This document shows positions 34,321-64,000 of a stretch of 64,000 nt of DNA, piece after piece (positions within the stretch are counted from its first letter, which is position 1; each line of letters begins with the position of its first letter). A program made the position numbers and the translations under genes. The notes under the pieces were generated by a model. That model was not told where the DNA came from, made no database searches, and saw nothing but the letters and a program-made list of their open reading frames with translations. This DNA comes from Eubacterium sp. AF36-5BH (GTDB lineage: Bacteria > Bacillota > Clostridia > Lachnospirales > Lachnospiraceae), in contig NZ_QTVG01000008.1 of the NCBI RefSeq assembly GCF_003460505.1, forward strand, positions 1-64,000. The letters are read 5' to 3'.

Positions 34321-34560
34321 TTTTCCCTCCTTCTTTTTTATGATTGTTAAATTACTAGATTGTATATTTTTTCTACACATTTGGCGATTTGTACATCCGT
34401 TTTGTTTCATCAAAGAAACATATGTCAACTTTTGTAACAACATGTATTTTAATATACAATATAATATTTTAGTTTAATAAAGCGTTAAATTATAATACAT
34501 TTTTCATTATATTCTTATATAATTTTTTGTATGAAATGCTGTTTTATATCAAATTTTATA

Positions 34561-49137: not shown

Positions 49138-49202
49138 TTTTGTGATCTCCTTTTTGTAATTTTCTTAAGTATATATATAAACTTAAATATGAACAAACCT
49201 AC

Positions 49203-49232
49203 AGAAAAGCCAACATAAAATGTCGGCTCTTC
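49203..49232 (-). terminator. Terminator after the MazF/SHOCT genes
   Basis: AGCCGACATTTTATGTTGGCT forms a stem followed by TTTCTGT on the minus strand, immediately after the 51-residue gene. Confidence 0.75.
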
Positions 49233-49233
49233 T

Positions 49234-49389
49234 TTAAAAACTTACTATGTCATACTCATTCATCAGTTTTCTCTTAATTCTTGAATATTCATCCATTGAA
49301 ATGTATTCTTTTCTCATTATCCATCCTAAAACAGCCAGTTTTTTTGTTAACTCTAGTTCTTTTGATTTTTCATTATGTTGAATCTCCAT
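49234..49389 (-). CDS. SHOCT-like small protein (51 aa)
   Basis: 51 residues, 'LTKKLAVLGWIMRKEYISMD' followed by 'EYSRIKRKLM'. It matches the SHOCT-type pattern (hydrophobic helix, Y/F-I-[ST]-x-x-E-[YF]-x-x-x-K) found at protein ends or as tiny stand-alone genes on mobile elements. Its ATG overlaps the mazF stop codon by one base (TAATG), so it is translationally coupled. Confidence 0.65.
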   Translation of the reverse strand: MEIQHNEKSKELELTKKLAVLGWIMRKEYISMDEYSRIKRKLMNEYDIVSF

Positions 49390-49754
49390 TACATATCAAC
49401 TCCAAGCTGTTTTATTATTGCGTCATTCACCTTTTTCATGACTTCTGATGTTTTTGGAATATGCCCAACTTTACTTATTATTTTCTTTTTTGCCACAACT
49501 GTAATTTGTTCTACTAACAATAATGATTCTTCTTCAAAGTATCCTTTCACATCCTTTGGTGTAACCAATATATGTGTTATAAATTTTTTCTTTGGCACTC
49601 TGCTTGTGCAAGGACAAACTGACAATGTATTTGAGTATTTATTATTTTTATTATTGCTTACTACTACACACGGACGAACACCTGACTGTATCGAAGTTTT
49701 CGGATGTTGACCTAAATCCACATATATAACATCTCCTCTAATAATTTGCTTCAT
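49389..49754 (-). CDS. MazF/PemK-family toxin
   Basis: A 121-residue sequence-specific mRNA interferase fold. 'RGDVIYVDLGQHPKTSIQSG' has the N-terminal strands, and 'VRPCVVVSNN' and the Ser/Thr of 'VCPCTSR' are the family hallmarks. The usual MazE antitoxin is absent. Its partner by position is the degraded resolvase-like protein upstream (overlap of 4 bases) or the XRE protein, so toxin control may be unconventional. Confidence 0.85.
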   Translation of the reverse strand: MKQIIRGDVIYVDLGQHPKTSIQSGVRPCVVVSNNKNNKYSNTLSVCPCTSRVPKKKFITHILVTPKDVKGYFEEESLLLVEQITVVAKKKIISKVGHIPKTSEVMKKVNDAIIKQLGVDM

Positions 49755-50131
49755 ACCTTTTCCCTCCTCTTAAGCTGTAAATTTAATTTTCCTTCGTCAA
49801 CTGTTATTATCTGCCCTCCTGCCTGAATAACTTTTCCTATTTTCTGATAGGCATCTTCTATATTTTGTGAAATTGCTGCCATATTGCATACTAAAATTCC
49901 GTCTGCTTTTTCGTTCTGTATTTCTCTTACCATTTTATTAAAGTGCGTATTTACAACACTGCATCCCATAATGTTTTTGTGCATAATTTTAATAATTCTC
50001 AAGTTATGTGCTTTAGCATATTCACTAATGTAACTAAGCTGTTTTTCTTCTTTCCAATCCACATTTTTATCTGTTGCATTCGTCACAGATAAGTATGCAA
50101 TCACATTTATACTTTTCTTTCTTTTACTCAT
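49751..50131 (-). CDS. Catalytically degraded resolvase-like protein A
   Basis: 126 residues with the fold of a serine-recombinase N-terminal domain: 'INVIAYLSVTNATDKNVDWK' in place of 'IAxYxRVSxxxQ', then 'EEKQLSYISEYAKAHNLRII' and 'KADGILVCNMAAISQNIED'. The Arg-Val-Ser block reads Ser-Val-Thr and the later Arg pair is missing, so strand cleavage is unlikely. No DNA-binding part is present. It overlaps mazF by 4 bases. It may be a protein-protein partner of the intact recombinase or the antitoxin (inference). Confidence 0.65.
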   Translation of the reverse strand: MSKRKKSINVIAYLSVTNATDKNVDWKEEKQLSYISEYAKAHNLRIIKIMHKNIMGCSVVNTHFNKMVREIQNEKADGILVCNMAAISQNIEDAYQKIGKVIQAGGQIITVDEGKLNLQLKRREKV

Positions 50132-50143
50132 TGTTTTCTCCTT

Positions 50144-50464
50144 TTAATTTGGTATTTCCTTTATCATTTGTACAAACTGCTGACTGAAATATGTCCTCAT
50201 TTCCGGTGAGAGTTTTCTTAATTCTTCATCAACAGATATGTTTCCCTGTTTATTTTGTATAGCAAGAATTGTATTTGCATCCGTATCTAATTCCGTTACC
50301 AATGCATATAACAAATCTATGCTAATTCTTCTGGTTCCCTCTTCCACTTGCGTAATATGAGAAACACTTTTTCCAACAGCTTCGCTAAGCTCATCTATTG
50401 TCATATTCTTATCTCTTCTTAACTGTCGGATAATAGAGCCGACGTTCCAACCTTCATATTTCAC
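50144..50464 (-). CDS. XRE-family regulator (106 aa)
   Basis: N-terminal lambda-repressor-type HTH ('IIRQLRRDKNMTIDELSEAV', 'KSVSHITQVEEGTRRISIDL') and an acidic C-terminal helix pair. The start codon is GTG inside a GTGA overlap with the upstream 43-residue gene. It sits between two resolvase-like genes in one operon. Confidence 0.85.
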   Translation of the reverse strand: MKYEGWNVGSIIRQLRRDKNMTIDELSEAVGKSVSHITQVEEGTRRISIDLLYALVTELDTDANTILAIQNKQGNISVDEELRKLSPEMRTYFSQQFVQMIKEIPN

Positions 50465-50592
50465 TTTACCTTCTCCTCTATGTACTCATCCGCTTCCTGC
50501 TCTGTCGGACAGGCAACTACTCGCCTGCCCGATGAGTCATAAACAACAACCTCTGAGGGATAAATTACTTTCTGATATTCCTTAACATTCAT
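50461..50592 (-). CDS. Small hypothetical protein (43 aa)
   Basis: 'MNVKEYQKVIYPSEVVVYDS' then 'GRRVVACPTEQEADEYIEEK': a short beta-hairpin-like core and an acidic helix. It is tightly packed between the second resolvase-like gene (11-base overlap) and the XRE gene (4-base overlap), which is the main support for it being real. Confidence 0.6.
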   Translation of the reverse strand: MNVKEYQKVIYPSEVVVYDSSGRRVVACPTEQEADEYIEEKVK

Positions 50593-50953
50593 AATCGTAA
50601 TTGACTGTTGCAAAACATCCCTCATCAAAAAGATAAACTCCTATTTCGTTTTCTTTCATTACTGAAAGAAATGCTTCTTTTTCAATAGGATCATCACTTA
50701 TGTCATTTAATGTTCTTAACACAATAAGGTTAATATTCTTATTTGCCATTTCATCTAAAAACTGATTAATAGTTTTTCTCTGAACTCCTGTTTCACCACT
50801 TGCATCTAAAAACCAGTAATTCACATTTAGGAGTCTTTTCTTACATTCATATCCGATGCGTTTTGTAACATCAATTACTGTATTAAAATCCTTCTGTGAT
50901 TTGATAAATATCACTCCATTTGCAACTTCTTTTCCATCAAAAATTTTCCACAT
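50582..50953 (-). CDS. Catalytically degraded resolvase-like protein B
   Basis: 123 residues. The second half, 'NKNINLIVLRTLNDISDDPI' followed by 'FLSVMKENEIGVYLFDEG', matches the 'IDxIxxxxxDRxSRD…L…GVxLxxxxE' part of serine recombinases, but the Arg residues are lost and the first half lacks 'YxRVS'. First gene of the operon ending with mazF and the SHOCT gene. A second, diverged copy of the same idea as the 126-residue protein. Confidence 0.6.
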   Translation of the reverse strand: MWKIFDGKEVANGVIFIKSQKDFNTVIDVTKRIGYECKKRLLNVNYWFLDASGETGVQRKTINQFLDEMANKNINLIVLRTLNDISDDPIEKEAFLSVMKENEIGVYLFDEGCFATVNYDYEC

Positions 50954-51056
50954 AAATCTATATACCTACTTTCATATTATTTGACTAATCAATGTGCACG
51001 TTTCTTAATCACAATTAAACTTTACAACTTTTAAATTCTTATTTTTATGAGGTTTC

Positions 51057-51075
51057 ATACGTAGTAACTACGTAT
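51057..51075. promoter_or_regulatory. Palindromic operator-like site
   Basis: ATACGTAGT-T-ACTACGTAT read on the minus strand (perfect 9-bp arms), followed to the right by a related ATACGCAT-like half (51079-51084). It lies between the XRE gene (51088-51384) and the operon starting at 50953, a likely binding site for that XRE protein. Confidence 0.55.
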
Positions 51076-51087
51076 CATATGCGTAGT

Positions 51088-51384
51088 TTATATATTTTCC
51101 AGAATTCCTTTTAATATTTTCATTGCTAATTCTTTCTTTTCTTCTGGAACATCAGTTAATAATTCACTACTCTTCCTTCCTATTATTAGATAATCTAATG
51201 TTGTATCCAAAATAGATGCCATTTCTACAAAGGTCTCTATGGTTGTGCTATGATTTCCCAATTCTATTCCACTGTAGGTTCTATGGGATATATTTAGCTC
51301 TTCGGCAAAGCTCTCCTGTGTATAACCTTTTGCCTTTCTTAATTCTTTGATTCTTTTTCCGCTTTCTTTTACGTTATAGTTCAT
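51088..51384 (-). CDS. XRE-family regulator (98 aa)
   Basis: Typical repressor HTH: 'IKELRKAKGYTQESFAEELN', 'ISHRTYSGIELGNHSTTIET', then a short helical tail. GGAAAGGAGAAAGAAATA precedes the ATG. Placed downstream of the SOS promoter and structured RNA and upstream of the mazF operon, it is the probable master repressor of the element. Confidence 0.88.
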   Translation of the reverse strand: MNYNVKESGKRIKELRKAKGYTQESFAEELNISHRTYSGIELGNHSTTIETFVEMASILDTTLDYLIIGRKSSELLTDVPEEKKELAMKILKGILENI

Positions 51385-52303: not shown

Positions 52304-53206
52304 TCATAATCTAGATAGTTTTGTAAATAAACGTTTATCTTTATATGATATCTTAGTGTTTTTTCTATATTCTGATTTAACCTCCCTATAGAATAATCCA
52401 ATATTTCTTGATGCCTTTTTACAGTAATCCTCATCAGCTATACATATTACATTGTAGTAATACCATAAAATATGATATAAATACCATTTTTCTAATTCTT
52501 CTTTTTCTTCTTTTTCCTTAAAAATAGAGCCACTTGATTTGATTCCATCAATACAACATTTGATGAGTTCATAATAGTAATCCCTCGCTGCATTAGCCAT
52601 TATACTATCATCTCTACATCTGTAATTATATAATCCTTTATGATATACAACGCTCTTGTCTGCCTTCGCAACAAGTTTAGGTAATGTATATAAATCTTCA
52701 TGAATTTTTCCCACAGGAAATTCAATATCATCAAACAATTCTCTCTTAAATAATTTCCCCCAAACTTCAAAACATGACGTATACAGCATATGTAAAAGCA
52801 TCTTATGTGAATTACCAATTATCACCTCTCCACTCTCAAAATGATGTCCAGATTTGACAATCGCTGTAATATCAGCATTATCCTCTTCCATCAACCACAC
52901 TAAAATTTCTAATGTTTTTTCATCAATCCAGTCATCTCCATCTACAAACATAATATATTCACCAGTAGATTTTTTTATTGCACAATTTCTAGCTGCAGAT
53001 AAACCTTGATTTTCTTGATGTATAACAATTACTTGTTCATATTTATTCGAATACTCATCACATATGTTAACGCTTTTATCTGTTGAGCCATCGTCAACAA
53101 GTATTATCTCAATATTTTTATATGTTTGCTTTATCAAAGAATCAATACATTTGGTAACATAACACTCGATGTTGTATACAGGCACAATTATTGACACTTT
53201 CTTCAT
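52304..53206 (-). CDS. GT2 family glycosyltransferase
   Basis: A 300-residue GT-A-fold transferase. 'VSIIVPVYNIECYVTKCIDS' and 'ILVDDGSTD' bind the nucleotide sugar, 'FVDGDDWID' is the DXD metal site, and 'GKIHEDLYTLPKLV' carries the ED acceptor-site motif. The C-terminus ends at 'KDKRLFTKLSRL', a little shorter than common relatives, and it abuts a relic of another gene, so the last residues may be lost. Last gene of the natural-product operon; it would add a sugar to the product or to a surface glycan. Confidence 0.88.
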   Translation of the reverse strand: MKKVSIIVPVYNIECYVTKCIDSLIKQTYKNIEIILVDDGSTDKSVNICDEYSNKYEQVIVIHQENQGLSAARNCAIKKSTGEYIMFVDGDDWIDEKTLEILVWLMEEDNADITAIVKSGHHFESGEVIIGNSHKMLLHMLYTSCFEVWGKLFKRELFDDIEFPVGKIHEDLYTLPKLVAKADKSVVYHKGLYNYRCRDDSIMANAARDYYYELIKCCIDGIKSSGSIFKEKEEKEELEKWYLYHILWYYYNVICIADEDYCKKASRNIGLFYREVKSEYRKNTKISYKDKRLFTKLSRL

Positions 53207-53231
53207 AAATCACCACTTTCTATTGATATAT

Positions 53232-54284
53232 TCATACATTATAATTATCAAAAAAGTCATTTAACGCTCTTAAACTGATTTCTAATTGCTGAAACAAACC
53301 CTTAACTTTCTCAACAATCAATTTGCCATGCTTTTTTTCTTTTTTTACATTATATTTCATAAAAAGAGTTCTTAATATAACAGTTTTGTGTGCCAAATCA
53401 CTGAATTCATTATAAATCCTTTTTATTTCTTCGTTACTAGATATATACTGATTATCAATCATATATTCAATTCTGGCACACATTACATCGTTAAATATAT
53501 ATATCAAATGTATCGTTTTATAATCGAGCCTAGAACCTTCACTTATACAATACTTCAAATATTCCACAATACGCTCTAAACACTCAATTCCATATACTAC
53601 TTCTTCACAAACTGTAAATAAATCAGATTCATCATTAATTGTATTCTCTTTCGAATTCAAAAAGTCAGAAATCATATTACGTGTTCTGTCAAAATCAAAG
53701 GTATATTTTTCATTTCTAGAATACTGCAATAATAGAACATTCACCATATCTACACTATCTCGTTCCCTTATATATCCCATATTTGCATCAAATGCCATCC
53801 TAAAATCTAAATATGGAATTTCCTTAACAGAATAAATATGCTTAAAAAAATCTGCTGCAAGAACAACTTTCTTTTCTTCGTTATACCCCATTACAAATAT
53901 CTCATGTGAACTATGAATTTTCGTTTCACTTTCAAGCCACCAGGAATCTATGTAGTAGGTGTCAACCTCGGTAAAAATATATTTTTTTGCTCTAATGCTA
54001 TCTTTTATAATCTCAATAATGTTATCTGTTTTATATAATTCAATTATTTCGTTTTTCAACATAGGACACTGTTCATAGTACTCTGAGTTCATATCATACT
54101 TAAAATCTCCCATGTAACCTTTTACATATTTGTTTGCATATATCCATAATGAAATGTAATTATTATATAACCAAATCTTATCGTCATTAACAGCTTTAAG
54201 AATACCATTTATGGCAGTATTCAAAGGATACGTCTTATATTTTGGTATTGTAAACGGTAAACTTATTGAATTATTATCACACAT
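53232..54284 (-). CDS. BtrH-like protein lacking the catalytic cysteine
   Basis: 350 residues with the same overall layout as the BtrH-like protein encoded at 58503-59558. 'IHSSHEIFVMGYNEEKKVVL' followed by 'AADFF' matches the His and Asp strand region (H127, D145), and a long helical C-terminal half follows. The N-terminal position that holds 'ELTCFHKPW' in the paralogue reads 'KYKTYPLNTAI', with no cysteine. It may bind acyl-carrier protein or product without catalysis. Ribosome site AAGGGGAATAGCAT. It follows the ABC genes by 15 bases. Assignment by layout and motif, not by strong identity. Confidence 0.55.
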   Translation of the reverse strand: MCDNNSISLPFTIPKYKTYPLNTAINGILKAVNDDKIWLYNNYISLWIYANKYVKGYMGDFKYDMNSEYYEQCPMLKNEIIELYKTDNIIEIIKDSIRAKKYIFTEVDTYYIDSWWLESETKIHSSHEIFVMGYNEEKKVVLAADFFKHIYSVKEIPYLDFRMAFDANMGYIRERDSVDMVNVLLLQYSRNEKYTFDFDRTRNMISDFLNSKENTINDESDLFTVCEEVVYGIECLERIVEYLKYCISEGSRLDYKTIHLIYIFNDVMCARIEYMIDNQYISSNEEIKRIYNEFSDLAHKTVILRTLFMKYNVKKEKKHGKLIVEKVKGLFQQLEISLRALNDFFDNYNV

Positions 54285-54299
54285 ATGCTATTCCCCTTT

Positions 54300-56090
54300 T
54301 TATTTGTAATATTTTGCTTGCGTATTGTACATTTTATAATAAAGTCCTGAAGTGTTATTAATTAACTCTTCATGACTCCCTTCCTCAATAATTGCTCCTC
54401 CACTAAACACTATTATCCTGTCGCAGAATTTACATGAAGACAATCTATGAGAAATATATATCGCAGTTTTTTTATTTACTAATTTGTCAAAATTATTATA
54501 AACTTCATATTCTGATATGGGATCAAGTGCAGCCGTTGGCTCATCCAATATTACTATTGGAGCATTTTTATACAGTGCCCTCGCAATTGCAAGTTTTTGA
54601 GCCTGTCCGCCTGAAGGCTCAACACCATCTTCAACAAACATTTTATATATATACGTATTGTCCTTGTTTTCAAGCTTATTAATCCACTCATCAACTCCGG
54701 CTAATTTGTATATTTCACTTAAATCTTCGTTCCTCTCTTTAAATACTGTAACATTGTCTTTTATATTAAATGCAAATAATCTATAATCCTGAAATACTAC
54801 TGATAGCATATTCATATATTCTGCTGCATTGTATTCTCTGGCTTCTTTCCCATTAATAATTATTTTACCTTCATAGTTATCATATAATCGACACAAAAGC
54901 TTAATAAACGTTGTCTTGCCTTCTCCGTTTTGCCCAACAATTGCAAGATGCTCTCCAGAATTTATTTTTAAGGATATGTTTTTTAAAATATATCTTTCAG
55001 TGTTTGGATATTTAAAACTAACATTATCAAACTCAATATCACATCTGCTAGGAGCATCTGTATTACAATCCACATGAATCAATTCTTCATTTTTTGATTT
55101 TACACTCTCAACAAAATCAATGTAATACTTTAATATTGATGATGTATAATTCATCCCCAAATAGGAATCTACTATTCCACTAATGGCATCTCCAAATTTT
55201 GAAGTGGCCTGGAATAAACTTGAAAACTCACCAATTGAAATCACTTTATTAAATATATTAACTGCTAACAATATATAAATTGAAGTATTACATATGGCAC
55301 GAAATACATTATTAATATTCCAAAAATTAACAAACTTTATATTGTATTTTTTGTTAGTGTTATATAACTTATCTACATATCCATCATATTTCTTTTCAAA
55401 TAATTCAGATGCATCATATAAACGTATATCCTTAGCATATCTGCTTTCAAGTAATTCAGTATTAAAATATGTACTTCCTCTTTCAAGATTTCCCATTTCA
55501 GAAAAGAGATTTTTTCTTACCTTATTAACCTTAGCGGTTGTATATGAATTCACAATAAATGAAATAATAACAGGAATCATCAATAATGGAATTCTAGTAC
55601 AAACTAATGTAACAACACCCAGCGCAACAATAAAATTCGAAGCTATCCCAGCTAAAGAATTAATTAACCCATTTACCTGTCCGGTTTCATTTAATGCCCT
55701 TTCTGCGTTTTTTATAACATCCAAAACCTCGGTATCTTCAGTATATTTAAACTTCATATTGACACAATTCATGCACAAATCTGTTTTGAAAATCCTATCA
55801 AATTTTTCCCCTATTCTGGCAATATTTTCTCCAACATATTTTATCATGGTCGCAATAATAAAATTGCCAATACAAATAAACGCTACCCAAAATACTATCC
55901 AACTTATATTTCTCTTTGAACCATCAACAATTTCATCAATCAAATACTGTGTTCCTATAATTGAAATAAATGGCGAAACTGAATTGACAATTATATTCAT
56001 TAGTAAAAACAGATAATATTTTTTGTCATTTTGCCATGCAAATTTACCAAAGAACTTAAAACAACGAATATTTTCTTTACTATTTTTCAT
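54300..56090 (-). CDS. ABC exporter, permease-ATPase (second subunit)
   Basis: 596 residues from ATG 56090 (GGAGGACAATACG). Six N-terminal membrane helices and a C-terminal nucleotide-binding domain: Walker A 'GQNGEGKTTFIKLL', signature 'PSGGQAQKLAIARAL', Walker B 'APIVILDEPTAALDP', H-loop 'YISHRLSS'. The signature starts with P instead of L, a mild degeneration often seen in one half of heterodimeric exporters. No C39 peptidase domain. It overlaps the first ABC gene by 11 bases; the two very likely form a heterodimer exporting the product. Confidence 0.93.
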   Translation of the reverse strand: MKNSKENIRCFKFFGKFAWQNDKKYYLFLLMNIIVNSVSPFISIIGTQYLIDEIVDGSKRNISWIVFWVAFICIGNFIIATMIKYVGENIARIGEKFDRIFKTDLCMNCVNMKFKYTEDTEVLDVIKNAERALNETGQVNGLINSLAGIASNFIVALGVVTLVCTRIPLLMIPVIISFIVNSYTTAKVNKVRKNLFSEMGNLERGSTYFNTELLESRYAKDIRLYDASELFEKKYDGYVDKLYNTNKKYNIKFVNFWNINNVFRAICNTSIYILLAVNIFNKVISIGEFSSLFQATSKFGDAISGIVDSYLGMNYTSSILKYYIDFVESVKSKNEELIHVDCNTDAPSRCDIEFDNVSFKYPNTERYILKNISLKINSGEHLAIVGQNGEGKTTFIKLLCRLYDNYEGKIIINGKEAREYNAAEYMNMLSVVFQDYRLFAFNIKDNVTVFKERNEDLSEIYKLAGVDEWINKLENKDNTYIYKMFVEDGVEPSGGQAQKLAIARALYKNAPIVILDEPTAALDPISEYEVYNNFDKLVNKKTAIYISHRLSSCKFCDRIIVFSGGAIIEEGSHEELINNTSGLYYKMYNTQAKYYK

Positions 56091-57918
56091 CGTATTGTCC
56101 TCCATCCATTTCATTTTTGTCTTTATAATATTGTGACTGCACTTCATACATATAAGCGTATTTTCCATTATTTGCAATTAATTCATCATGTGTACCTTCT
56201 TCCACAATCTCTCCACCGTCAAACATCGCTATCTTGTCGCAGAATCTTGTACTTCCCAACCTATGAGAAATAAAAATAGCTGTTTTTCCTTGAATCATAT
56301 TATCGAATTCGCGATACATTTTATCTTCTGCAAGTGCATCTAAAGCTGCCGTAGGTTCATCTAAAATAATAACTTCTCCACCTTTGTACATTGCTCTAGC
56401 CATTGCTAGTCTTTGTTTTTCTCCTCCTGACAAATCAATTCCTTCTTTATCAAAAATTTTTAGCAAATTAGAATACAAATCTTTATCGTAACAATCTATT
56501 TTGGATTTTAATCCACTCTGTTCAAGCACCTTTCTTACTTTGTCCATATCTGTATTCTTTTCTTCTTCAAAAGATATGTTTTCATAAATTGGCATTGCAA
56601 AGCACTCTACATTTTGAAATACCGGAGAGAATAATTTGAAATATTCTTCTCGATTATATTCTTTTATATCTACACCATTTAAGAGAATTCTTCCCTGAGT
56701 AGGTTCATACAGTTTCATAATCAGTTTAATTAAAGTTGTTTTTCCCGCACCATTCACACCAACTATGGCAAGTTTTTCTCCGTCACTAATTTTTAAATTA
56801 ATATTTTTCAATGCATAAATATCATGCCCCGGATATTTAAAACTCACATTCTGGAACTCAAAGGAATATTTGCCGTCATGAAAACTATGATTTTTCTCTT
56901 TATCAACAACGTTCTTTTTACTTTCTTCCCAGTTTAAAAAATTTCTGTAATCATTAATCAAAAGACAATTACCTCTGATGTTCGAGAAAATCCAGTTTAC
57001 ATATCCCACTGAATCATGAAAAGTGATTACCAAACCAACATATAGAATGAAATCTGATATCTGATAATTTCCTTGTATAACATTGTATACAAGCCATATG
57101 TACATAAGAGTTTTCTGCATTAATAATACCAATTCCATATCTACGCTGCATATAATCCATCTATTATGATGTTTTTTATTTAATTTGTTAAATATATCGT
57201 TAGTACTATTTAATTCTCTACCAAAAATATCTGACATACTAAATATTCTAATATCCTTAGCAAAATCAAAGTTTTTGGTAACTCCTTCTAAATATGTCAT
57301 CTTACGCCATACCGGAGCCATTTTATCAGTAAACTTTTCTTTATCAAGTCTGGTAAAAAATGCTAATATTTTTGCAATGCCAAAAGAGATTATTATAAAG
57401 AATATCATCACAAAGACATTTTGAATTCCAATCAATGTTGCAGATATTATCATTAAAGCACCTTGTGCAATAAAGTTTCTACTTTCAAATAATACACCAA
57501 AAAAGCCTCTTCCCCTATACAATGCAGTTTTGGCTTTTTGTGCAAAATCTAAAAACTCTGGTGACTCCATATTTTTGAAATCAGTATGAAATATTTTACT
57601 CATTCGAAGTTTTTCAAGATACCCTTCTGTTATACGATACTCATAATCAAATGCATTATTACTTATCGTACTAATAATGTTAAAAATCAATATTACTGTA
57701 CAAACAATAATTATATTGAAAATAATTTTATTCAACTCGAGATTTTGTTCAATAAAAGATAACACCAATTTGGGGGAATATGCCCACATTAACTTTGTAA
57801 CTATGTTTGCCATTGGTTTAATTAATATAACAGCCAACAGTTTTTTATTGCTCTTCTTTGCGATTTGAAGTGCATACATAAAATTATTCAAAAAACCATA
57901 CGTTTTTTCTTTTTCCAT
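56080..57918 (-). CDS. ABC exporter, permease-ATPase (first subunit)
   Basis: 612 residues from ATG 57918 (GAGGAGAACA). Six membrane helices; Walker A 'GVNGAGKTTLIKLI', intact signature 'LSGGEKQRLAMARAM', Walker B 'VIILDEPTAALDA', H-loop 'FISHRLGS'. The canonical half of the pair. No peptidase domain, so any leader must be removed by another enzyme. Confidence 0.93.
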   Translation of the reverse strand: MEKEKTYGFLNNFMYALQIAKKSNKKLLAVILIKPMANIVTKLMWAYSPKLVLSFIEQNLELNKIIFNIIIVCTVILIFNIISTISNNAFDYEYRITEGYLEKLRMSKIFHTDFKNMESPEFLDFAQKAKTALYRGRGFFGVLFESRNFIAQGALMIISATLIGIQNVFVMIFFIIISFGIAKILAFFTRLDKEKFTDKMAPVWRKMTYLEGVTKNFDFAKDIRIFSMSDIFGRELNSTNDIFNKLNKKHHNRWIICSVDMELVLLMQKTLMYIWLVYNVIQGNYQISDFILYVGLVITFHDSVGYVNWIFSNIRGNCLLINDYRNFLNWEESKKNVVDKEKNHSFHDGKYSFEFQNVSFKYPGHDIYALKNINLKISDGEKLAIVGVNGAGKTTLIKLIMKLYEPTQGRILLNGVDIKEYNREEYFKLFSPVFQNVECFAMPIYENISFEEEKNTDMDKVRKVLEQSGLKSKIDCYDKDLYSNLLKIFDKEGIDLSGGEKQRLAMARAMYKGGEVIILDEPTAALDALAEDKMYREFDNMIQGKTAIFISHRLGSTRFCDKIAMFDGGEIVEEGTHDELIANNGKYAYMYEVQSQYYKDKNEMDGGQYDEK

Positions 57919-57966
57919 TGTTCTCCTCACTAGCTATCTTCAGATTTTTTTATAAATAGTTTTCTA

Positions 57967-58212
57967 TCAATTCTTAATTTTTATTATGTTTTCTACGTAA
58001 TTTACAAAATCCCCTACAGTTTTGTAATTTGAAGTAAGCATATTTTCATCATCAAATTCTATTCCAAAATTATCTTCGATTTCTACAATAATTGTGATAA
58101 AATTTAATGACTCTATTTCGATTTCTTTAAAAGTAGTGTCTAATCCAATATTATCCGTCAGTTCCCCTACTTCAATCATTAATTTAACAATCTCTTGCTC
58201 AATATTATTCAT
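57967..58212 (-). CDS. Acyl/peptidyl carrier protein (second)
   Basis: An 81-residue four-helix carrier protein. The phosphopantetheine Ser is in 'EIESLNFIT' (S35; the usual DSL reads ESL). 'EIEDNFGIEFDDEN' is the typical acidic helix II/III. Stand-alone, not part of a megasynthase. It sits between the BtrH-like and ABC genes. No phosphopantetheinyl transferase is in the window, so the housekeeping enzyme would have to activate it. Confidence 0.85.
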   Translation of the reverse strand: MNNIEQEIVKLMIEVGELTDNIGLDTTFKEIEIESLNFITIIVEIEDNFGIEFDDENMLTSNYKTVGDFVNYVENIIKIKN

Positions 58213-58502
58213 AGTTGTCTCCTTTTTTTACTAAAAACACTATTTTCAATTATGTTTTTTCTTCATCTATTAATTCATTATTTTTCTTTACTAGATGTAT
58301 TCTAGTTTTGTCGTTGTATCTTTCTAACTGTTTCAATTAAAGAACAAAAAAACATCCTGACAAACATTTTTTCTTCTTAACCATTTCAATAAACTCTTTA
58401 TAATCGTAATTTTTGAGATTTGATTATAACTCATTATATTTAAAAATATTTTTCCCATTTAACAATGTGTAGATTTCAAAAAATAATTTATTTTTTTATC
58501 CT
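58213..58502 (-). other. Gap inside the natural-product operon
   Basis: About 290 AT-rich bases between the BtrH-like and second carrier-protein genes, much longer than the other gaps in the operon. A minus-strand frame ending 'EMVKKKKCLSGCFFVL' is seen without a ribosome site. It may be a gene relic, or the gap may hold an internal promoter. Nothing firmer can be supported. Confidence 0.3.
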
Positions 58503-59558
58503 TTACTCATCTGGGCTAACGTCTATATACTTAATATTTTCAATAAGTTTAACTACCTTTTCAAACAATTCTTCATCTCGTTTTCTGCATTTACAAAAGT
58601 CTTCTTCAAGCTTTGTTAAACCATCACTTTTCCTTGCAAACTTATATAAAACAGACATTTTCAATTTTTCCCACTTGGCATAATCATCTTTTCTGGATGC
58701 CAAAAGACTTGCGATTTCATCCTTGTCTATATTTGCTTCTTTTAATAATATAAACAGCATATCATAATATACTTCTTTAAAGTTAAGTACTTTTGCATAA
58801 ATTCTTGAGTAATTCGCAATATTTTCATTTTTCCTGTGAATAATATCGGTTTCTGGATATGACAAAATTCCTTTATTTTCTTTTGCCATTAACAATTCTT
58901 CTCTATGAATTTTCAATGCTTCTTCATAATTATATGTATATTTGTTTTCAGTAATATATTCCATATCCCAATAATATGGAAACTCTTCTTTCTTAAGAAT
59001 AGAGTTAAAAATTGCTTCTGCAATTTTATAAACACAATCAAAAGTTAATGCAAAATTCTTATACACCCCATCAATACCACCATCAATCTGCATATTGTCT
59101 AGAACATAAAATACCTCTTTATCAATATCAAATCCTTTAATAATAAGAAAATGAACATGGTTGCGAACTTTATATTCTTCATAATATGGTAATTCTATAA
59201 GATCAACTGGTACAAGTATTCGGTGATCATTTTCTAGATTACTACAAATATTTTTTATAAACTCATTCTGGCTCTTGTACACATTTTTATTTACTTTCAC
59301 ACCAAATCTAGGTTCTAGAATTTCTTTGACAAACTTATAGTAATTATTATTAAAGTTTCCGTTAAAATCATACCATTTAAAATAATAATTATAATCAAAA
59401 TTCTCATAAAAAATCGATGTTAATAAATATAAATTAAAATATTCTTTTTTTATAGAACCATACAAAATTGCCCATGGTTTATGAAAACAGGTTAATTCCC
59501 TTGGACTATAATTATCATCATTAGGTACTATTTTTTTTTGAACAAACTTATTAACCAT
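58503..59558 (-). CDS. BtrH-like Cys-His-Asp acyltransferase
   Basis: 351 residues resembling the N-terminal domain of the butirosin protein BtrH, which transfers an acyl group from a carrier protein to an amine. A plausible triad is C24 in 'ELTCFHKPWAILYG', H134 or H136 in 'VRNHVHFLIIKGFD', and D154 in 'FYVLDNMQIDGG', in the order and spacing of papain-like folds. The C-terminal half is helical. In this operon it would take the aminoacyl group loaded on the carrier protein by the neighbouring ligase and attach it to a peptide or small molecule. Family assignment is by motif pattern and context. Confidence 0.65.
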   Translation of the reverse strand: MVNKFVQKKIVPNDDNYSPRELTCFHKPWAILYGSIKKEYFNLYLLTSIFYENFDYNYYFKWYDFNGNFNNNYYKFVKEILEPRFGVKVNKNVYKSQNEFIKNICSNLENDHRILVPVDLIELPYYEEYKVRNHVHFLIIKGFDIDKEVFYVLDNMQIDGGIDGVYKNFALTFDCVYKIAEAIFNSILKKEEFPYYWDMEYITENKYTYNYEEALKIHREELLMAKENKGILSYPETDIIHRKNENIANYSRIYAKVLNFKEVYYDMLFILLKEANIDKDEIASLLASRKDDYAKWEKLKMSVLYKFARKSDGLTKLEEDFCKCRKRDEELFEKVVKLIENIKYIDVSPDE

Positions 59559-59597
59559 AATTATCTTTGCATTATCTCCTTACTAACAACTGCCATT

Positions 59598-60728
59598 TTA
59601 GTTTTTATATTCTTTTCTTATTAATTCTGGCCAGTTATTTGAATCTTCCCCATACTGGGATAAAAACGAAAGCACAAAACGTTCTAAACCAAATCCTATA
59701 CATCCTGTAACCGTATCTTTGTCTTTTATTTTAATATTAAAAGGATATGTAAACGCTGTTCCATGCAGATTAAATGATGCCACAGACATATACTTATCAA
59801 CATCATACGAAACTTGCAATTCATACTTGCTCTTATCGAGTTGTTGAATTTTTTTAAATTTTTGCATTTTAGGCAATATGAATGAATCCGTTGCAACTAT
59901 TATTTTGGAATCTACATTTACATATTTAATAAATTCTTTTATTTTACCTATCATTTTCTCCATAGAATTATTTATGAAGTCATTGTCCCCAATAAATACT
60001 ATCTCTCTGACATGATAGTCTCTCATTCTTCCAAACTGAGAGAAATTAAATCTTCCCTCATTTCTAAAAACATTTTGCACAAATGTTACGACAGTATCCT
60101 TCTCAAGTATCCTATTCTTATATTCTTCATACACATGAAAACATGCAGATGGAGATAAAGCATACTGTGGATTGTTAATCACACTCTTATAATCATAAAA
60201 GTTAATACTATCAATTTTTCCTAGGCTCTTCAAATTTTCTACTGCTGAGCAGCAGAAAATAGAGTACTGTGGAGATCTTTTCAAATATCCTGTTTTCTTG
60301 TAGCTTGAAACTGGAAGCATTACAGGATAAATCTTCTTAACAAAATCAGTTTTCTCATTACTAAATGCATCTTCAGCTATCTTCTCAAATACGGAATTAA
60401 AATAATTGAATAAAAATAGAGACTGATCACTGAATGAAATCATTCCATCATCAAAATAATGCACTGAAGAAAAGTCATTTTCATACTTAATAACATCAAT
60501 CCTATTTTCAAATTCTTTCTGTTCTAAAGAACTGTTTGGAATATACTTATTAGCTAAGCTTATTATGTCATTAGTTAACTCACTTTCGTTTGTGTCATCT
60601 GAAACATTCAAAATCAACTTACAATTCTCAAATCGGACTCCTTCTATATTTTCAGAAACAAAACCAACTATTTTTTTAAATTCACTCAAAATAACTTTAT
60701 CATCAAGTTCTATCTCTATCTTTTTCAT
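59598..60728 (-). CDS. Amino acid:[carrier protein] ligase (class II aaRS-like)
   Basis: 376 residues homologous to the catalytic core of atypical SerRS but without a tRNA-binding arm, i.e. the amino acid:[carrier protein] ligase family. Motif 2 is 'FRNEGRFNFSQFGRMRDYHV' (221-240) and motif 3 is 'GFGLERFVLSFL' (345-356). The family's active-site zinc ligands fit C196 ('SPSACFHVY'), E242 ('HVREIVFIG') and C343 ('TVTGCIGFG'), with the expected spacing. It should adenylate a small amino acid (Gly or Ala in known members) and load it on the phosphopantetheine of the carrier protein encoded immediately upstream. The N-terminal 90 residues are extra. Confidence 0.85.
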   Translation of the reverse strand: MKKIEIELDDKVILSEFKKIVGFVSENIEGVRFENCKLILNVSDDTNESELTNDIISLANKYIPNSSLEQKEFENRIDVIKYENDFSSVHYFDDGMISFSDQSLFLFNYFNSVFEKIAEDAFSNEKTDFVKKIYPVMLPVSSYKKTGYLKRSPQYSIFCCSAVENLKSLGKIDSINFYDYKSVINNPQYALSPSACFHVYEEYKNRILEKDTVVTFVQNVFRNEGRFNFSQFGRMRDYHVREIVFIGDNDFINNSMEKMIGKIKEFIKYVNVDSKIIVATDSFILPKMQKFKKIQQLDKSKYELQVSYDVDKYMSVASFNLHGTAFTYPFNIKIKDKDTVTGCIGFGLERFVLSFLSQYGEDSNNWPELIRKEYKN

Positions 60729-60761
60729 CTGCTATATCACCATCCATGCATATAAAAATAA

Positions 60762-61010
60762 TTAACTATTTTTTGCTTTTGTTACTACTTCAATCAAGGT
60801 CTTTACATCTTTACAACTTCTAATATCAGCAAGATAATCATCCAAATCAATCTCAAATTTATCCTCTAATTCCAATACAAGCGATACAATACCCAATGAA
60901 TCAATACCAATTTCCCTTGAAATAAGAGTATTCTCATCAACTACTATTCCTGATACTATTTCCGAAATGATAGTTTCTATACATTCAATTACACCTTCTT
61001 TTATATCCAC
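60762..61010 (-). CDS. Acyl/aminoacyl carrier protein (first)
   Basis: 82 residues, GTG start behind GGAGGGAGAATGCT. The phosphopantetheine Ser is in 'EIGIDSLGIVSLV' (S38), with the acidic recognition helix 'LELEDKFEIDLDD'. Its gene directly precedes that of the amino acid:[carrier protein] ligase, so it is the most likely acceptor of the activated amino acid. Confidence 0.92.
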   Translation of the reverse strand: MDIKEGVIECIETIISEIVSGIVVDENTLISREIGIDSLGIVSLVLELEDKFEIDLDDYLADIRSCKDVKTLIEVVTKAKNS

Positions 61011-61024
61011 AGCATTCTCCCTCC

Positions 61025-61954
61025 TTATTCCTCTTTTAGTAGTCTGACAGACACTTCATCTATTCCACCCATTAATATTCCTTTATAATGTTTCTCCATA
61101 AAATAATTAATAAAATCTACTCTATTTTTGTACAGTCCTTCATCATCGAATGACGGAACATATAGTAGTTGACCATCAATATTAACAAATACCTCTGAAC
61201 AATCCAATTCTCTTGCTAAATCTTCATATATCTGCATTGAAACTTTGTAATCATATTCCGTATTCTGATGTATTTCATTATTAACTTTATCTAACTGAAT
61301 AATATATAATTCAATTTCATTATTATCATTAAGTAGCACTAACCCGTCCTTCATATGCATTTGTTCAGGACTAAGCACTTTCTTTTGATCATAACCATTG
61401 TCTTTTTCATCAGTCCCGAATATTTCATCACATAATTTTATGTCATACTGCTTTAATGTGCTTTTTCTTATCTTTATTCCTGTCTTATATGTACCTACTA
61501 CCTTGCACTTCTTTCCATCATAAGCTACTACTGTAGAACCGTTTGATAAAAATGCTGCTTTCTTTGCTAGACAAAGGTGCATTGATGTTGCTGTCTTTCC
61601 GCTTCCACTGCTTCCAAACAATAACAAAACTCTATTATCTACTACAACACTTGAAGCATGTAGAATATACATCCCTTTTTCTTGAAGATCACGTTTAATC
61701 AAAACATTCAAAATAACAATAACTGCATTATAAACATCATCATCTATTTTTTTTACTGAAAGAGTTAATCTGTTATTTGCCTTATCCCAATCGACCTCAG
61801 CTGTGTCTGCAATTTTAATTACAAACTCCTTGCTATAATCTTTGTCTGAATTCTTTTCTAAATTATAATAAGCGGGCACTACCCTTTCTATTTCAAACTC
61901 ACACTCACATATCATTTTTACTCTTGTTGTTTTCCAACTAATAATATTGTTCAC
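61025..61954 (-). CDS. HprK-like P-loop protein 1
   Basis: 309 residues, GTG start (GGAGGTAAAACAA). 'MYILHASSVVVDNRVLLLFG' then the P-loop 'GSSGSGKTATS' (114-124) and 'AAFLSNGSTVVAYD' follow the HPr kinase/phosphorylase and PEPCK-like pattern found in several peptide natural-product loci, without the HPr-specific signature or N-terminal DRTGG domain. It may phosphorylate a peptide or small substrate, or be an ATP-binding scaffold. It overlaps the radical SAM gene by 17 bases. Confidence 0.75.
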   Translation of the reverse strand: MNNIISWKTTRVKMICECEFEIERVVPAYYNLEKNSDKDYSKEFVIKIADTAEVDWDKANNRLTLSVKKIDDDVYNAVIVILNVLIKRDLQEKGMYILHASSVVVDNRVLLLFGSSGSGKTATSMHLCLAKKAAFLSNGSTVVAYDGKKCKVVGTYKTGIKIRKSTLKQYDIKLCDEIFGTDEKDNGYDQKKVLSPEQMHMKDGLVLLNDNNEIELYIIQLDKVNNEIHQNTEYDYKVSMQIYEDLARELDCSEVFVNIDGQLLYVPSFDDEGLYKNRVDFINYFMEKHYKGILMGGIDEVSVRLLKEE

Positions 61955-62816
61955 TTGTTTTACCTCCGTTCCGTACTGCTAGCTTACATTTTTCACACAA
62001 TTCTATACTTTTTTTATTTCTATCATAGATTTGTTTTCTAACTTTTGCATATTCTTCACTATTCCAAATTTCTGAAATAGTGTTTGTGGTAATACTACCT
62101 AAAACCACTTCTGACCTCCAGTCCTGACAGCAAATTACAACTCTGCCGTCACTCAATATATGCATTCTTTCTAAAGGTCTGTTTTGTTCACATCCACATA
62201 TTCCAGAATCACTGCAAACATTATTCTTATAAAAGGAATTATTACCAGCTCTGTCCAAATATCCCCAACGGTTAAATGTAATTCCATTATCTTTACAATA
62301 TTTTTCCATCAACTCATATTCTTCTTTATCAACCAAATCATGTTCTATCATCGTTATACTCATATTAGGAATAATCTCTTTTAATCCTGAATTCATAAGC
62401 ATATTAAGTTTTTGCCATGATTCATCATACTTTAATCCAGGCATCATCTGCTCATATGATTGTTTGTAATAACCAAAAAAACTAATTCTAAAATCATATA
62501 TTTCTAATTCTTTTAATTTATTAATACTTTCTTCTGTAATACATGAAATATTAGTGGATATCTCTATTTTGCAATTAGGACATTTTCGATTGATTTTCTT
62601 AATCTTTTCTAAGAATCCCGGATCAAGAAATGGTTCATTATTTAAATATGGAATTAACAGCATATCCTTTTGCCCAACTTCTGAAATCAACTTATCGAAC
62701 AAGCTATCACTCATATATGTCTTAGTATTTGATATCTCTCTATAAGGACAAATAACACAATTCGCATTACAATAATTATGTAATTGAAATTCTATTACAC
62801 TTGGAAAATCTTTCAT
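61938..62816 (-). CDS. Radical SAM/SPASM enzyme
   Basis: 292 residues from ATG 62816. The CX3CX2C cluster is 'CNANCVICPY' (C16, C20, C23). SAM-barrel features 'YLNNEPFLDP' and 'IEISTNISCIT' follow. The C-terminal SPASM-type region has 'CGCEQNRPLERMHILSDGRV', 'VICCQDW' and 'SIELCEKCKLA', enough cysteines for an auxiliary cluster. Similar enzymes modify peptides or small molecules. It lies between two HprK-like genes with overlapping ends, so the three products probably act together. There is no separate RRE domain gene. Confidence 0.9.
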   Translation of the reverse strand: MKDFPSVIEFQLHNYCNANCVICPYREISNTKTYMSDSLFDKLISEVGQKDMLLIPYLNNEPFLDPGFLEKIKKINRKCPNCKIEISTNISCITEESINKLKELEIYDFRISFFGYYKQSYEQMMPGLKYDESWQKLNMLMNSGLKEIIPNMSITMIEHDLVDKEEYELMEKYCKDNGITFNRWGYLDRAGNNSFYKNNVCSDSGICGCEQNRPLERMHILSDGRVVICCQDWRSEVVLGSITTNTISEIWNSEEYAKVRKQIYDRNKKSIELCEKCKLAVRNGGKTSEQYY

Positions 62817-62824
62817 TTTATATA

Positions 62825-63772
62825 TCAACTCCCCAATACATATTTCTCTATATCATTACCCTGCCCACGAATCCATTCAATATTGAAATTTTTACCAGTG
62901 CAAATCTGTTCGAGCAATTTGAATAAATACTCTGAATCTTTCTTTTTAAAGAAAAATGATGAATCTATAAATAGATTAGAAATTGTCTTTCTGTCTTCAT
63001 GTATTGCAACAACTGATTTACCACGAATATACTGTACAAGTTCCTTGTAGACCTCAATCTGTAAAGCAGAATCTACTTTGTTTGATACCTCAAGTTCTTT
63101 TGTCTTTCCCATTCCAACAAAATAAATTTTAACTTTATTACATCTCAATGTATTTTTACTCAAGTCTACAAAGTCCGCTGTCCCCTTAACATATTTATTA
63201 AAAATACATTCATTAGTGTTAGTCAGTTTTCTGTATAAATTTCTATCCAGATTATACAAAACATGCGATCTGAATGTTATCTGACTACCATAATCCGAAT
63301 AAACAACTGTAGCAGTATTATCATCATTTATTTTTAATTCTATATAATCGTTTGCTACAAGTTTTATATCATCATGTTTCATTGCAAGCAGATATGCCAT
63401 ACTTGTCTTTCCAGAACCTTTTCCTCCAGAAAAAATTATCACTTCATCTCCCTTGACAACAGCTGAAGCATGTAAGCTTACAATATTTTCTCTCAAGTTT
63501 CTTTTTTGGTACAGAAGGAATATAATCGACTGAAGAATTGTCGAAGACAACAGTTCTTCCTCCTTTCCAAGCAAAACTATTTTATCTTCTCCATATCTAA
63601 CTTCATTTATTTCTGCTTCAACAAATTCAATACTGAAATCAATCATTCCGCACCAATTATCCAGCACTTCTATTTTTCCCTTACCTAAAACTGATTTTCC
63701 TTCCATTTTTTTTATAGTATCATTTTTTCCATTATATTTTATTATCATATTTCTATATTTAATATATTTCAT
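62825..63772 (-). CDS. HprK-like P-loop protein 2
   Basis: 315 residues from ATG 63772. It shares with protein 1 the block 'IVSLHASAVVKGDEVIIFSG' and P-loop 'GGKGSGKTSMA' (116-126), then 'LVANDYIELKI' and 'SQITFRSHVLYNLD'. The conserved 'LHAS.VV' before the P-loop is the family hallmark. A hairpin GCCTTT-GGCAG-AAAGGC lies just upstream of the start. It follows the putative precursor gene by about 130 bases. Confidence 0.75.
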   Translation of the reverse strand: MKYIKYRNMIIKYNGKNDTIKKMEGKSVLGKGKIEVLDNWCGMIDFSIEFVEAEINEVRYGEDKIVLLGKEEELLSSTILQSIIFLLYQKRNLRENIVSLHASAVVKGDEVIIFSGGKGSGKTSMAYLLAMKHDDIKLVANDYIELKINDDNTATVVYSDYGSQITFRSHVLYNLDRNLYRKLTNTNECIFNKYVKGTADFVDLSKNTLRCNKVKIYFVGMGKTKELEVSNKVDSALQIEVYKELVQYIRGKSVVAIHEDRKTISNLFIDSSFFFKKKDSEYLFKLLEQICTGKNFNIEWIRGQGNDIEKYVLGS

Positions 63773-63901
63773 CCTAATTTTTTGCCTTTCTGCCAAAGGC
63801 ATTCACATGTTATGAAACATATGGACAACCTTCGCTTTTTTATTTTCTATTATCGTTTCCTTCCGATGCTATTTTTAAGACTAACACAGTAAATAACATG
63901 T

Positions 63902-64000
63902 TTAGTTGAATGGCGTAGCTGTATAGCTGTGACCTCGCATACTTATATGTTGTCGTTCATCCGTTAAAGCATCACTGAATGGTGCATAACTGTAGCCTGA
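63902..64000 (-). CDS. C-terminus of a small protein, candidate precursor peptide (partial)
   Basis: The minus frame open from the window edge gives 32 residues and a stop. It contains 'GYSYAPFSD', a charged spacer 'LTDERQHISM', and 'RGHSYTATPFN' at the very end. The two blocks follow a common G-(Y/H)-S-Y-(x)-A-(x)-P-F-(S/N) plan, i.e. two core-like repeats, as in precursors of ribosomal peptides. It is encoded directly upstream of the HprK/radical SAM genes on the same strand. The start lies beyond the window, so length and ribosome site are unknown. Confidence 0.5.
   Translation of the reverse strand, partial: SGYSYAPFSDALTDERQHISMRGHSYTATPFN

What the first reader, a model, noticed from the sequence alone, without database searches (positions are those of the whole stretch)
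52304..64000. Undescribed natural-product operon mixing radical SAM, HprK-like, carrier-protein and BtrH-like enzymes
Seen: at least eleven same-strand genes encode two HprK-like P-loop proteins, a radical SAM/SPASM enzyme, two stand-alone carrier proteins, an amino acid:[carrier protein] ligase, two BtrH-like proteins, a pair of ABC exporters and a GT2 enzyme, many with overlapping ends. Known: butirosin uses BtrH to move an acyl group from a carrier protein to an amine, and amino acid:[carrier protein] ligases load Gly/Ala on carrier proteins. Inference: the locus makes an aminoacylated, radically modified and perhaps phosphorylated and glycosylated peptide without NRPS modules. I know of no described cluster with this set.
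Basis: partly seen in the sequence, partly recalled or inferred. Interest (0 to 1): 0.93.

Follow-up and report, generated by a model that had tools for sequence, protein, structure and literature searches.

The report
Gut-bacterium carrier-protein amide-assembly gene cluster
A run of eleven genes in an uncultured Clostridia-type bacterium looks like a small-molecule assembly line that loads an amino acid onto a tiny carrier protein and joins it to something else without the usual giant enzymes; the central steps recur in other bacteria, but the product is unknown and the cluster is cut off by the end of the window.

Summary
The eleven genes are real. The centre is well supported: an amino acid:[carrier protein] ligase (LIG) with its metal-site residues intact, an adjacent carrier protein (CP1), and a papain-fold transferase (BH1) whose predicted structure matches CtaG, AziU3/U2 and CcbD over nearly its full length, with an invariant Cys/His/Asp set. 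The centre recurs: among 14 LIG-bearing genomes, BtrH_N lies near LIG in 11 (8 above cut-off), NTP_transf_5 in 10, CYTH in 7. Aminoacylation without NRPS modules therefore has good anatomical support, but the mode has precedents (closthioamide, lincosamides, butirosin). Corrections: both HprK-like proteins lack the first Asp of the HKDD motif and K2 lacks both, so phosphorylation is doubtful; the second BtrH-like protein lacks the Cys; BH1 lacks a C-terminal domain of about 190 residues that most relatives have; CP2's relatives elsewhere are mostly parts of larger proteins, at least one an adenylation-carrier didomain. K1, K2 and the radical SAM gene are variable accessories. The cluster runs off the window at 64000, where an unidentified ORF end could be a precursor peptide. 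Verdict: new variant of a known kind; product unknown.

The parts
63902..64000 (-). C-terminal end (32 aa) of an ORF cut by the window edge, 99 bp upstream of K1; identity unknown, possible precursor peptide
   Evidence: no homologue found
62825..63802 (-). K1: HprK-like P-loop protein, 325 aa; motif H-K-N-D instead of H-K-D-D
   Evidence: TIGR04352 E 0.016; motif alignment
61938..62828 (-). Radical SAM/SPASM protein, 296 aa, CNANCVIC cluster motif
61025..61954 (-). K2: HprK-like P-loop protein, 309 aa; motif H-K-N-G (neither Asp)
   Evidence: TIGR04355 E 7e-7; motif alignment; its only whole-genome matches in 14 genomes lie near LIG in G006 and G003
60762..61010 (-). CP1: stand-alone carrier protein, 82 aa, Ser in DSL motif
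   Evidence: PF00550 2.6e-5; a relative lies within 0.6 kb of LIG in 11 of 17 loci
59598..60728 (-). LIG: amino acid:[carrier protein] ligase, 376 aa
58503..59558 (-). BH1: papain-fold (BtrH/CtaG/CcbD-type) transferase, 351 aa; Cys24, His136, Asp154 invariant
58213..58502 (-). 290-bp gap where most relatives encode a further ~190-residue C-terminal domain of BH1; no remnant of that domain found
57967..58212 (-). CP2: second stand-alone carrier protein, 81 aa; resembles the carrier part of larger proteins in related loci
   Evidence: PF00550 1.3e-10
56080..57930 (-). ABC1: MsbA-type ABC exporter half
   Evidence: 35% identical relative upstream of LIG in L006
54300..56177 (-). ABC2: MsbA-type ABC exporter half (start codon uncertain)
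   Evidence: 40% identical relative upstream of LIG in L006
53232..54284 (-). BH2: remote BtrH-like protein without the catalytic Cys; keeps a His and an Asp at the matching columns
   Evidence: BtrH_N E 0.014; alignment; BLAST relatives in L003 (7e-10) and L007 (2e-6), not seen by phmmer
52304..53206 (-). GT2 glycosyltransferase, 300 aa
   Evidence: PF00535 1e-41

Best explanation
A cluster for a secreted small molecule assembled on stand-alone carrier proteins, without NRPS condensation modules in the stretch seen. LIG adenylates an amino acid (a small one such as Gly, Ala or Ser, by analogy) and loads it on the phosphopantetheine of CP1. BH1, a papain-fold acyltransferase with a Cys-His-Asp site, takes the aminoacyl group onto its Cys and passes it to an amine: either an amine carried on CP2 (as proposed for CtaG) or an amino sugar or similar acceptor (as CcbD and BtrH do). 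BH2, Cys-less, is a non-catalytic partner. The radical SAM enzyme and GT2 tailor the product, the HprK-like proteins K1 and K2 act in an unknown way (K2 probably not as a kinase), and the ABC1/ABC2 pair exports it. SHOWN by computation: gene content, families, active-site residues, predicted fold of BH1, recurrence of the LIG-carrier-BtrH core. INFERRED: every reaction, the substrate, the order of steps, the export.
Against: No loading or transfer was measured. CP2 has no loading enzyme in the window, and no PPTase was found there (tblastn with one to three relatives of each). BH1 lacks a domain that 13 of 16 relatives have, so the cluster may be decaying. LIG has an N-terminal domain of about 95 residues absent from Bll0957 and its top Foldseek hits are methanogen-type SerRS, so charging of a tRNA is not excluded. 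The acceptor is unknown. NTP_transf_5 and CYTH, common in related loci, were not found in the window, though the upstream part is cut off. K1 and the radical SAM protein found no relative in the 28 loci then held.
Confidence: 0.6

Rival explanations
1. A ribosomal peptide (RiPP) pathway: the ORF cut at 64000 is the precursor, the radical SAM enzyme and HprK-like proteins modify it, LIG/CP1/BH1 aminoacylate it, and the MsbA-type pair exports it, as in the linear polyphosphorylated peptide (LPP) or paeninodin families.
For: An ORF end lies 99 bp upstream of K1. HprK-like kinase, NTP transferase and MsbA-like exporter are core genes of LPP clusters (PMC13381572, section 6), and NTP_transf_5 is common beside LIG.
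Against: No homologue of the edge peptide (one search with exact-word limits) and no similar short ORF beyond chance in the fetched loci. No RRE/PqqD or leader peptidase match among the eleven genes (Pfam; NCBIfam for ten of them). K1 lacks the first and K2 both Asp of HKDD. HprK_rel_B matches lie near LIG in only 3 of 14 genomes.
Confidence: 0.17
2. Cell-surface modification rather than a diffusible product: an amino acid is put on the amino group of a surface sugar or lipid-linked intermediate that GT2 and the MsbA-type proteins build and flip.
For: [quoted passage not shown] A GT2 gene and MsbA-type exporters are present. CcbD and BtrH act on amino sugar acceptors.
Against: No polysaccharide polymerase or lipid-carrier gene family was matched among the eleven; several related loci carry Sfp-type PPTase-like and adenylation-carrier-like ORFs as secondary-metabolite clusters do (read by eye; Pfam for one didomain).
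Confidence: 0.15
3. A decaying or non-functional cluster: truncated BH1, orphan CP2 and a K2 without catalytic Asp are remnants.
For: Missing BH1 domain with no remnant, also missing in a near-identical 351-aa protein from another record, P0121; no loading enzyme for CP2 found in the window; K2 H-K-N-G; a recombinase-rich stretch abuts the cluster (names read by eye).
Against: The other ten ORFs are open over family-typical lengths and LIG active-site residues are kept; BH1 without the extra domain is still a full CtaG/CcbD-like fold; LIG proteins that round to 100% identity stand for dozens of public contigs.
Confidence: 0.08

Closest known systems
Closthioamide pathway (CtaE/CtaH carriers, CtaG transferase)
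   Different: Loading here is by a class II aaRS-like ligase; radical SAM, HprK-like and GT2 genes are present; no thioamide synthetase (CtaC) type match among the eleven genes.
Lincosamide condensing enzyme CcbD/LmbD and butirosin BtrH
   Different: Acceptor here unknown; loading enzyme and neighbours differ.
Amino acid:[carrier protein] ligase operons of Bradyrhizobium/Agrobacterium type (Bll0957)
   Same: LIG-type enzyme with a small carrier protein; metal-site residues conserved. A Rhizobium ligase match is annotated together with a DUF1839 protein, a family classed as papain-like (PMC10318531, passages); that this is the partner predicted in 2010 is my inference.
   Different: LIG is only about 20-25% identical to those; extra N-terminal domain; the papain-fold neighbour here is BtrH_N-type; different neighbourhood.
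Paeninodin-type lasso peptides and linear polyphosphorylated peptides
   Same: HprK-like protein and MsbA-type exporter; NTP_transf_5 in related loci.
   Different: No precursor, RRE or leader peptidase identified; Asp residues of the HKDD motif missing in K1 (first) and K2 (both).

Membership tests
Amino acid:[carrier protein] ligase | Class II aaRS core related to Bll0957 | tested here: met
   (PRK07080 score 107 is below that model's strict cut-off of 357)
Amino acid:[carrier protein] ligase | Metal-binding Cys/Glu/Cys of the active site (ligand identity recalled: C131, E176, C279) | tested here: met
   Align to C196, E242, C343 with one chain-numbering offset of 20; invariant in 30 sequences
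Amino acid:[carrier protein] ligase | No tRNA-binding domain | tested here: inconclusive
   N-terminal ~95 residues not aligned to Bll0957; Foldseek ranks methanogen-type SerRS first
Amino acid:[carrier protein] ligase | Loads an amino acid on a carrier protein | not testable with these tools
   needs an in vitro loading assay
BtrH/CtaG/CcbD papain-fold transferase (BH1) | Papain-like fold with C-terminal helical part | tested here: met
BtrH/CtaG/CcbD papain-fold transferase (BH1) | Catalytic Cys-His-Asp/Glu | tested here: met
   C24, H136, D154 invariant in 14 sequences; agreement with CtaG judged by spacing only, not by superposed coordinates
BtrH/CtaG/CcbD papain-fold transferase (BH2) | Catalytic Cys | tested here: not met
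   profile match also below cut-off
HprK-like kinase (K1) | His, P-loop Lys and Asp-Asp (HKDD) | tested here: not met
   H-K-N-D in K1; controls L034, L036, L037 read H-K-D-D
HprK-like kinase (K2) | His, P-loop Lys and Asp-Asp (HKDD) | tested here: not met
   H-K-N-G in K2
Paeninodin/LPP RiPP cluster | Precursor peptide, RRE, leader peptidase | tested here: inconclusive
   no match among the eleven genes, edge ORF unidentified; cluster is cut at 64000
Paeninodin/LPP RiPP cluster | MsbA-like exporter | tested here: met
   (best NCBIfam match for both ABC proteins, below its strict cut-off)
NRPS-independent thiotemplated pathway (closthioamide type) | Stand-alone carrier proteins plus papain-fold transferase, no condensation modules | tested here: met
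   for 52304-64000 only

The most novel reading that the evidence does not exclude
A new class of NRPS-module-free pathways in Clostridia and Paenibacillus in which an aaRS-like ligase, a carrier protein and a papain-fold amide synthase build an aminoacyl conjugate, and phosphate or nucleotide chemistry is applied to that small-molecule or carrier-bound intermediate. The chemistry would come from NTP_transf_5, CYTH and HprK-like proteins with Asp replaced by Asn, and in single loci CTP synthase, NDK and thymidylate-kinase-like proteins. The product would be a nucleotidylated or phosphorylated aminoacyl compound, and the HprK-like proteins would have a function other than protein Ser phosphorylation.
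Probability: 0.2. Interest if true: 0.8.

Novelty: new variant of a known kind. Interest (0 to 1): 0.58.

Why it matters
Amino acid:[carrier protein] ligases have been known since 2010, yet the passages seen here name no natural product made with one. This cluster and its relatives place such a ligase beside its carrier and a papain-fold amide synthase, which makes the reaction directly testable with three small proteins. The recurring NTP_transf_5/CYTH neighbours and the Asp-to-Asn HprK-like variants add an open question about phosphate chemistry on carrier-bound or small-molecule intermediates.

Tried and rejected
Rejected: 'genes never co-occur'. Rejected as unproven: active Ser kinases. 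Considered and kept low: RiPP, surface glycan modification, decay.

Led nowhere: LIG in IMG/VR, 11 pattern stretches, none a relative. Edge peptide search, no candidate. K1 and K2 against solved structures, nothing useful. BH1 profile against solved structures by sequence, nothing. K1, the radical SAM protein and BH2 by phmmer against the 28 loci then held: nothing at E <= 1; K2 matched one. Radical SAM protein in 397 genomes at E <= 1e-25, none (no positive control, so it shows nothing). Promoter and terminator scans gave no more than shuffles, so operon ends are not defined. LIG is rare: 7 of 397 genomes of G001's family. The plasmid search found 71 records, every one under 60% identical and none covering 80% of the query. 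The ten paper searches that ran listed no title or abstract start describing this gene set; several lists were cut (for example 10 of 548), the last search required five of six terms and found nothing, and the library lacks most subscription journals. Absence of any family from fold-search lists is not used as evidence.

Limits of counts: the 14-genome set was chosen because it carries LIG; the genomes of L012 (near-identical to L010) and L014 were not in it. LIG positions of G004 and G012 were not entered, so those genomes count as misses. The 'expected' values assume uniform placement. Of the 11 genomes with BtrH_N near LIG, 8 have such a match above the Pfam cut-off (the ninth genome above it, G010, has it on another contig). 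CYTH is found in 11 of 14 control genomes, so for it only the position counts. A CxxxCxxC pattern was found in 9 of 15 loci L001-L017 tested; L007 was dropped as a likely non-radical-SAM protein, leaving 8, and only three proteins in two of these loci were confirmed by Pfam. Twenty-eight neighbour proteins of related loci were scanned with Pfam (9, 9, 10); other neighbour names were read by eye. The lasso-type label of L034 and L037 was read by eye from their neighbours.
Full report
WHAT IS THERE. Eleven minus-strand genes fill 52304-63802. Read in gene order they are K1 (HprK-like), a radical SAM/SPASM protein, K2 (HprK-like), CP1 (carrier), LIG (aa:[carrier protein] ligase), BH1 (BtrH_N), CP2 (carrier), ABC1 and ABC2 (MsbA-type), BH2 (remote BtrH-like) and a GT2 glycosyltransferase. 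Junctions are tight (gaps of 14-39 bp, or overlaps of 4, 17 and 98 bp) except 290 bp after BH1. The longest ORF in 100 Markov shuffles of the stretch was 168 aa against 625 aa observed. Another ORF ends at 63902 and is cut by the window edge. The stretch has G+C of 0.26-0.31, against 0.30-0.40 in the rest of the window. No genome is held for the window. Its Era protein is 81% identical to that of two genomes among 200 drawn from the family of G001, and G001 is titled a Lachnospiraceae MAG, so a Lachnospiraceae-like host is likely.

THE LIGASE AND CARRIER. LIG matches Bll0957 by sequence (4.7e-15) and by predicted fold (model pLDDT 86; TM-score 0.75-0.77 of the target for the best-ranked chains), although methanogen-type SerRS structures rank first in Foldseek and LIG has an extra N-terminal domain of about 95 residues. 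The Bll0957 residues that I recall as metal ligands align to C196, E242 and C343, all invariant among 30 aligned sequences. A CP1 relative lies within 0.6 kb of LIG in 11 of 17 loci. LIG is uncommon: 7 of 397 genomes of one family.

RECURRENCE. In 14 LIG-bearing genomes, matches within 20 kb of LIG are: BtrH_N in 11 genomes (8 above the Pfam cut-off), NTP_transf_5 in 10, CYTH in 7, HprK_rel_B in 3, against 0.2-0.3 expected matches per family by uniform placement. NTP_transf_5 is absent from 12 of 14 control genomes; CYTH is present in 11 of 14 controls, so for CYTH only the position counts. In five loci (L002, L003, L005, L006, L007) CP2 matches a protein of about 550-600 aa; Pfam confirms an adenylation-carrier didomain in the one tested, L002. 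The closest cluster overall is in G006 (L006, L029): LIG, carrier, BtrH_N genes, an ABC pair 35-40% identical to ABC1/ABC2, three radical SAM-like genes (by motif), a K2-like gene 13 kb from LIG, CTP synthase, a decarboxylase and CYTH. L001 adds PNP, PPDK_N, NDK and a sub-threshold thymidylate-kinase match. Thus the LIG-carrier-BtrH core is shared, and the radical SAM and HprK-like genes are accessories; K1 and the radical SAM protein of the window found no relative by phmmer in 28 loci.

THE HPRK-LIKE PROTEINS. Lasso-tailoring kinases share an essential His-Lys-Asp-Asp set (PMC9266682, passages seen). Aligned with a housekeeping HPr kinase (L036) and two lasso-type kinases (L034, L037), which read D-D, K1 reads N-D and K2 N-G. 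Three kinases from other loci (L002, L031, L035) read N-D, and L029 reads D-D. L035 is a G003 locus with NTP_transf_5 and no LIG seen in the 6 kb fetched. An N-D subgroup therefore exists, and 'phosphorylated' cannot be assumed.

HOW IT PROBABLY WORKS. LIG loads an amino acid on CP1; BH1 moves it through Cys24 to an amine, either on CP2 or free; radical SAM and GT2 tailor; the ABC pair exports. Only the anatomy is shown. The acceptor, the loader of CP2 and the order of steps are unknown.

WHAT IS KNOWN. Stand-alone carriers with a papain-fold transferase are known from closthioamide; the carrier-to-amine step from lincosamides and butirosin. A 2010 note predicted that aa:CP-ligase neighbourhoods ligate an amino acid to a cell-surface sugar derivative through a linked uncharacterized ORF (PMC2922099, note added in proof, passage seen). 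SpI peptidase, RRE, HprK-like kinase, NTP transferase and MsbA-like exporter define the LPP family of 2026 (PMC13381572, section 6 read). No title or abstract start listed by the searches describes this combination. I rate it a new variant of a known kind.

Noticed in passing
window 47491-51384: Recombinase-rich stretch just downstream of the cluster: a large serine recombinase-like ORF, a MazF/PemK-like ORF, two short resolvase-like ORFs and HTH proteins (names read by eye).
   Followed up: no
L035 (G003:C65:13000-19000): A second cluster type with an N-D HprK-like protein, a small P-loop kinase-like protein and NTP_transf_5, with no LIG seen in the 6 kb fetched.
   Followed up: partly
L009 (G001:C30): The genome of L001 holds a second, different LIG cluster with BtrH_N-type proteins and an adenylate-forming-enzyme-like ORF.
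   Followed up: partly
L030 (G006:C30:58000-72000): Next to the L006 cluster: adenylation-like proteins, two small carrier proteins, BtrH-like proteins and a second MsbA-type pair (read by eye).
   Followed up: no
L017/L022/L028 (G014:C18): The LIG gene is split into two overlapping ORF pieces, with a stop inside one of the two matches, in this assembly.
   Followed up: no
window 27862-34443: A 2193-aa predicted multidomain protein with a Thr/Gln-rich linker near its end.
   Followed up: no
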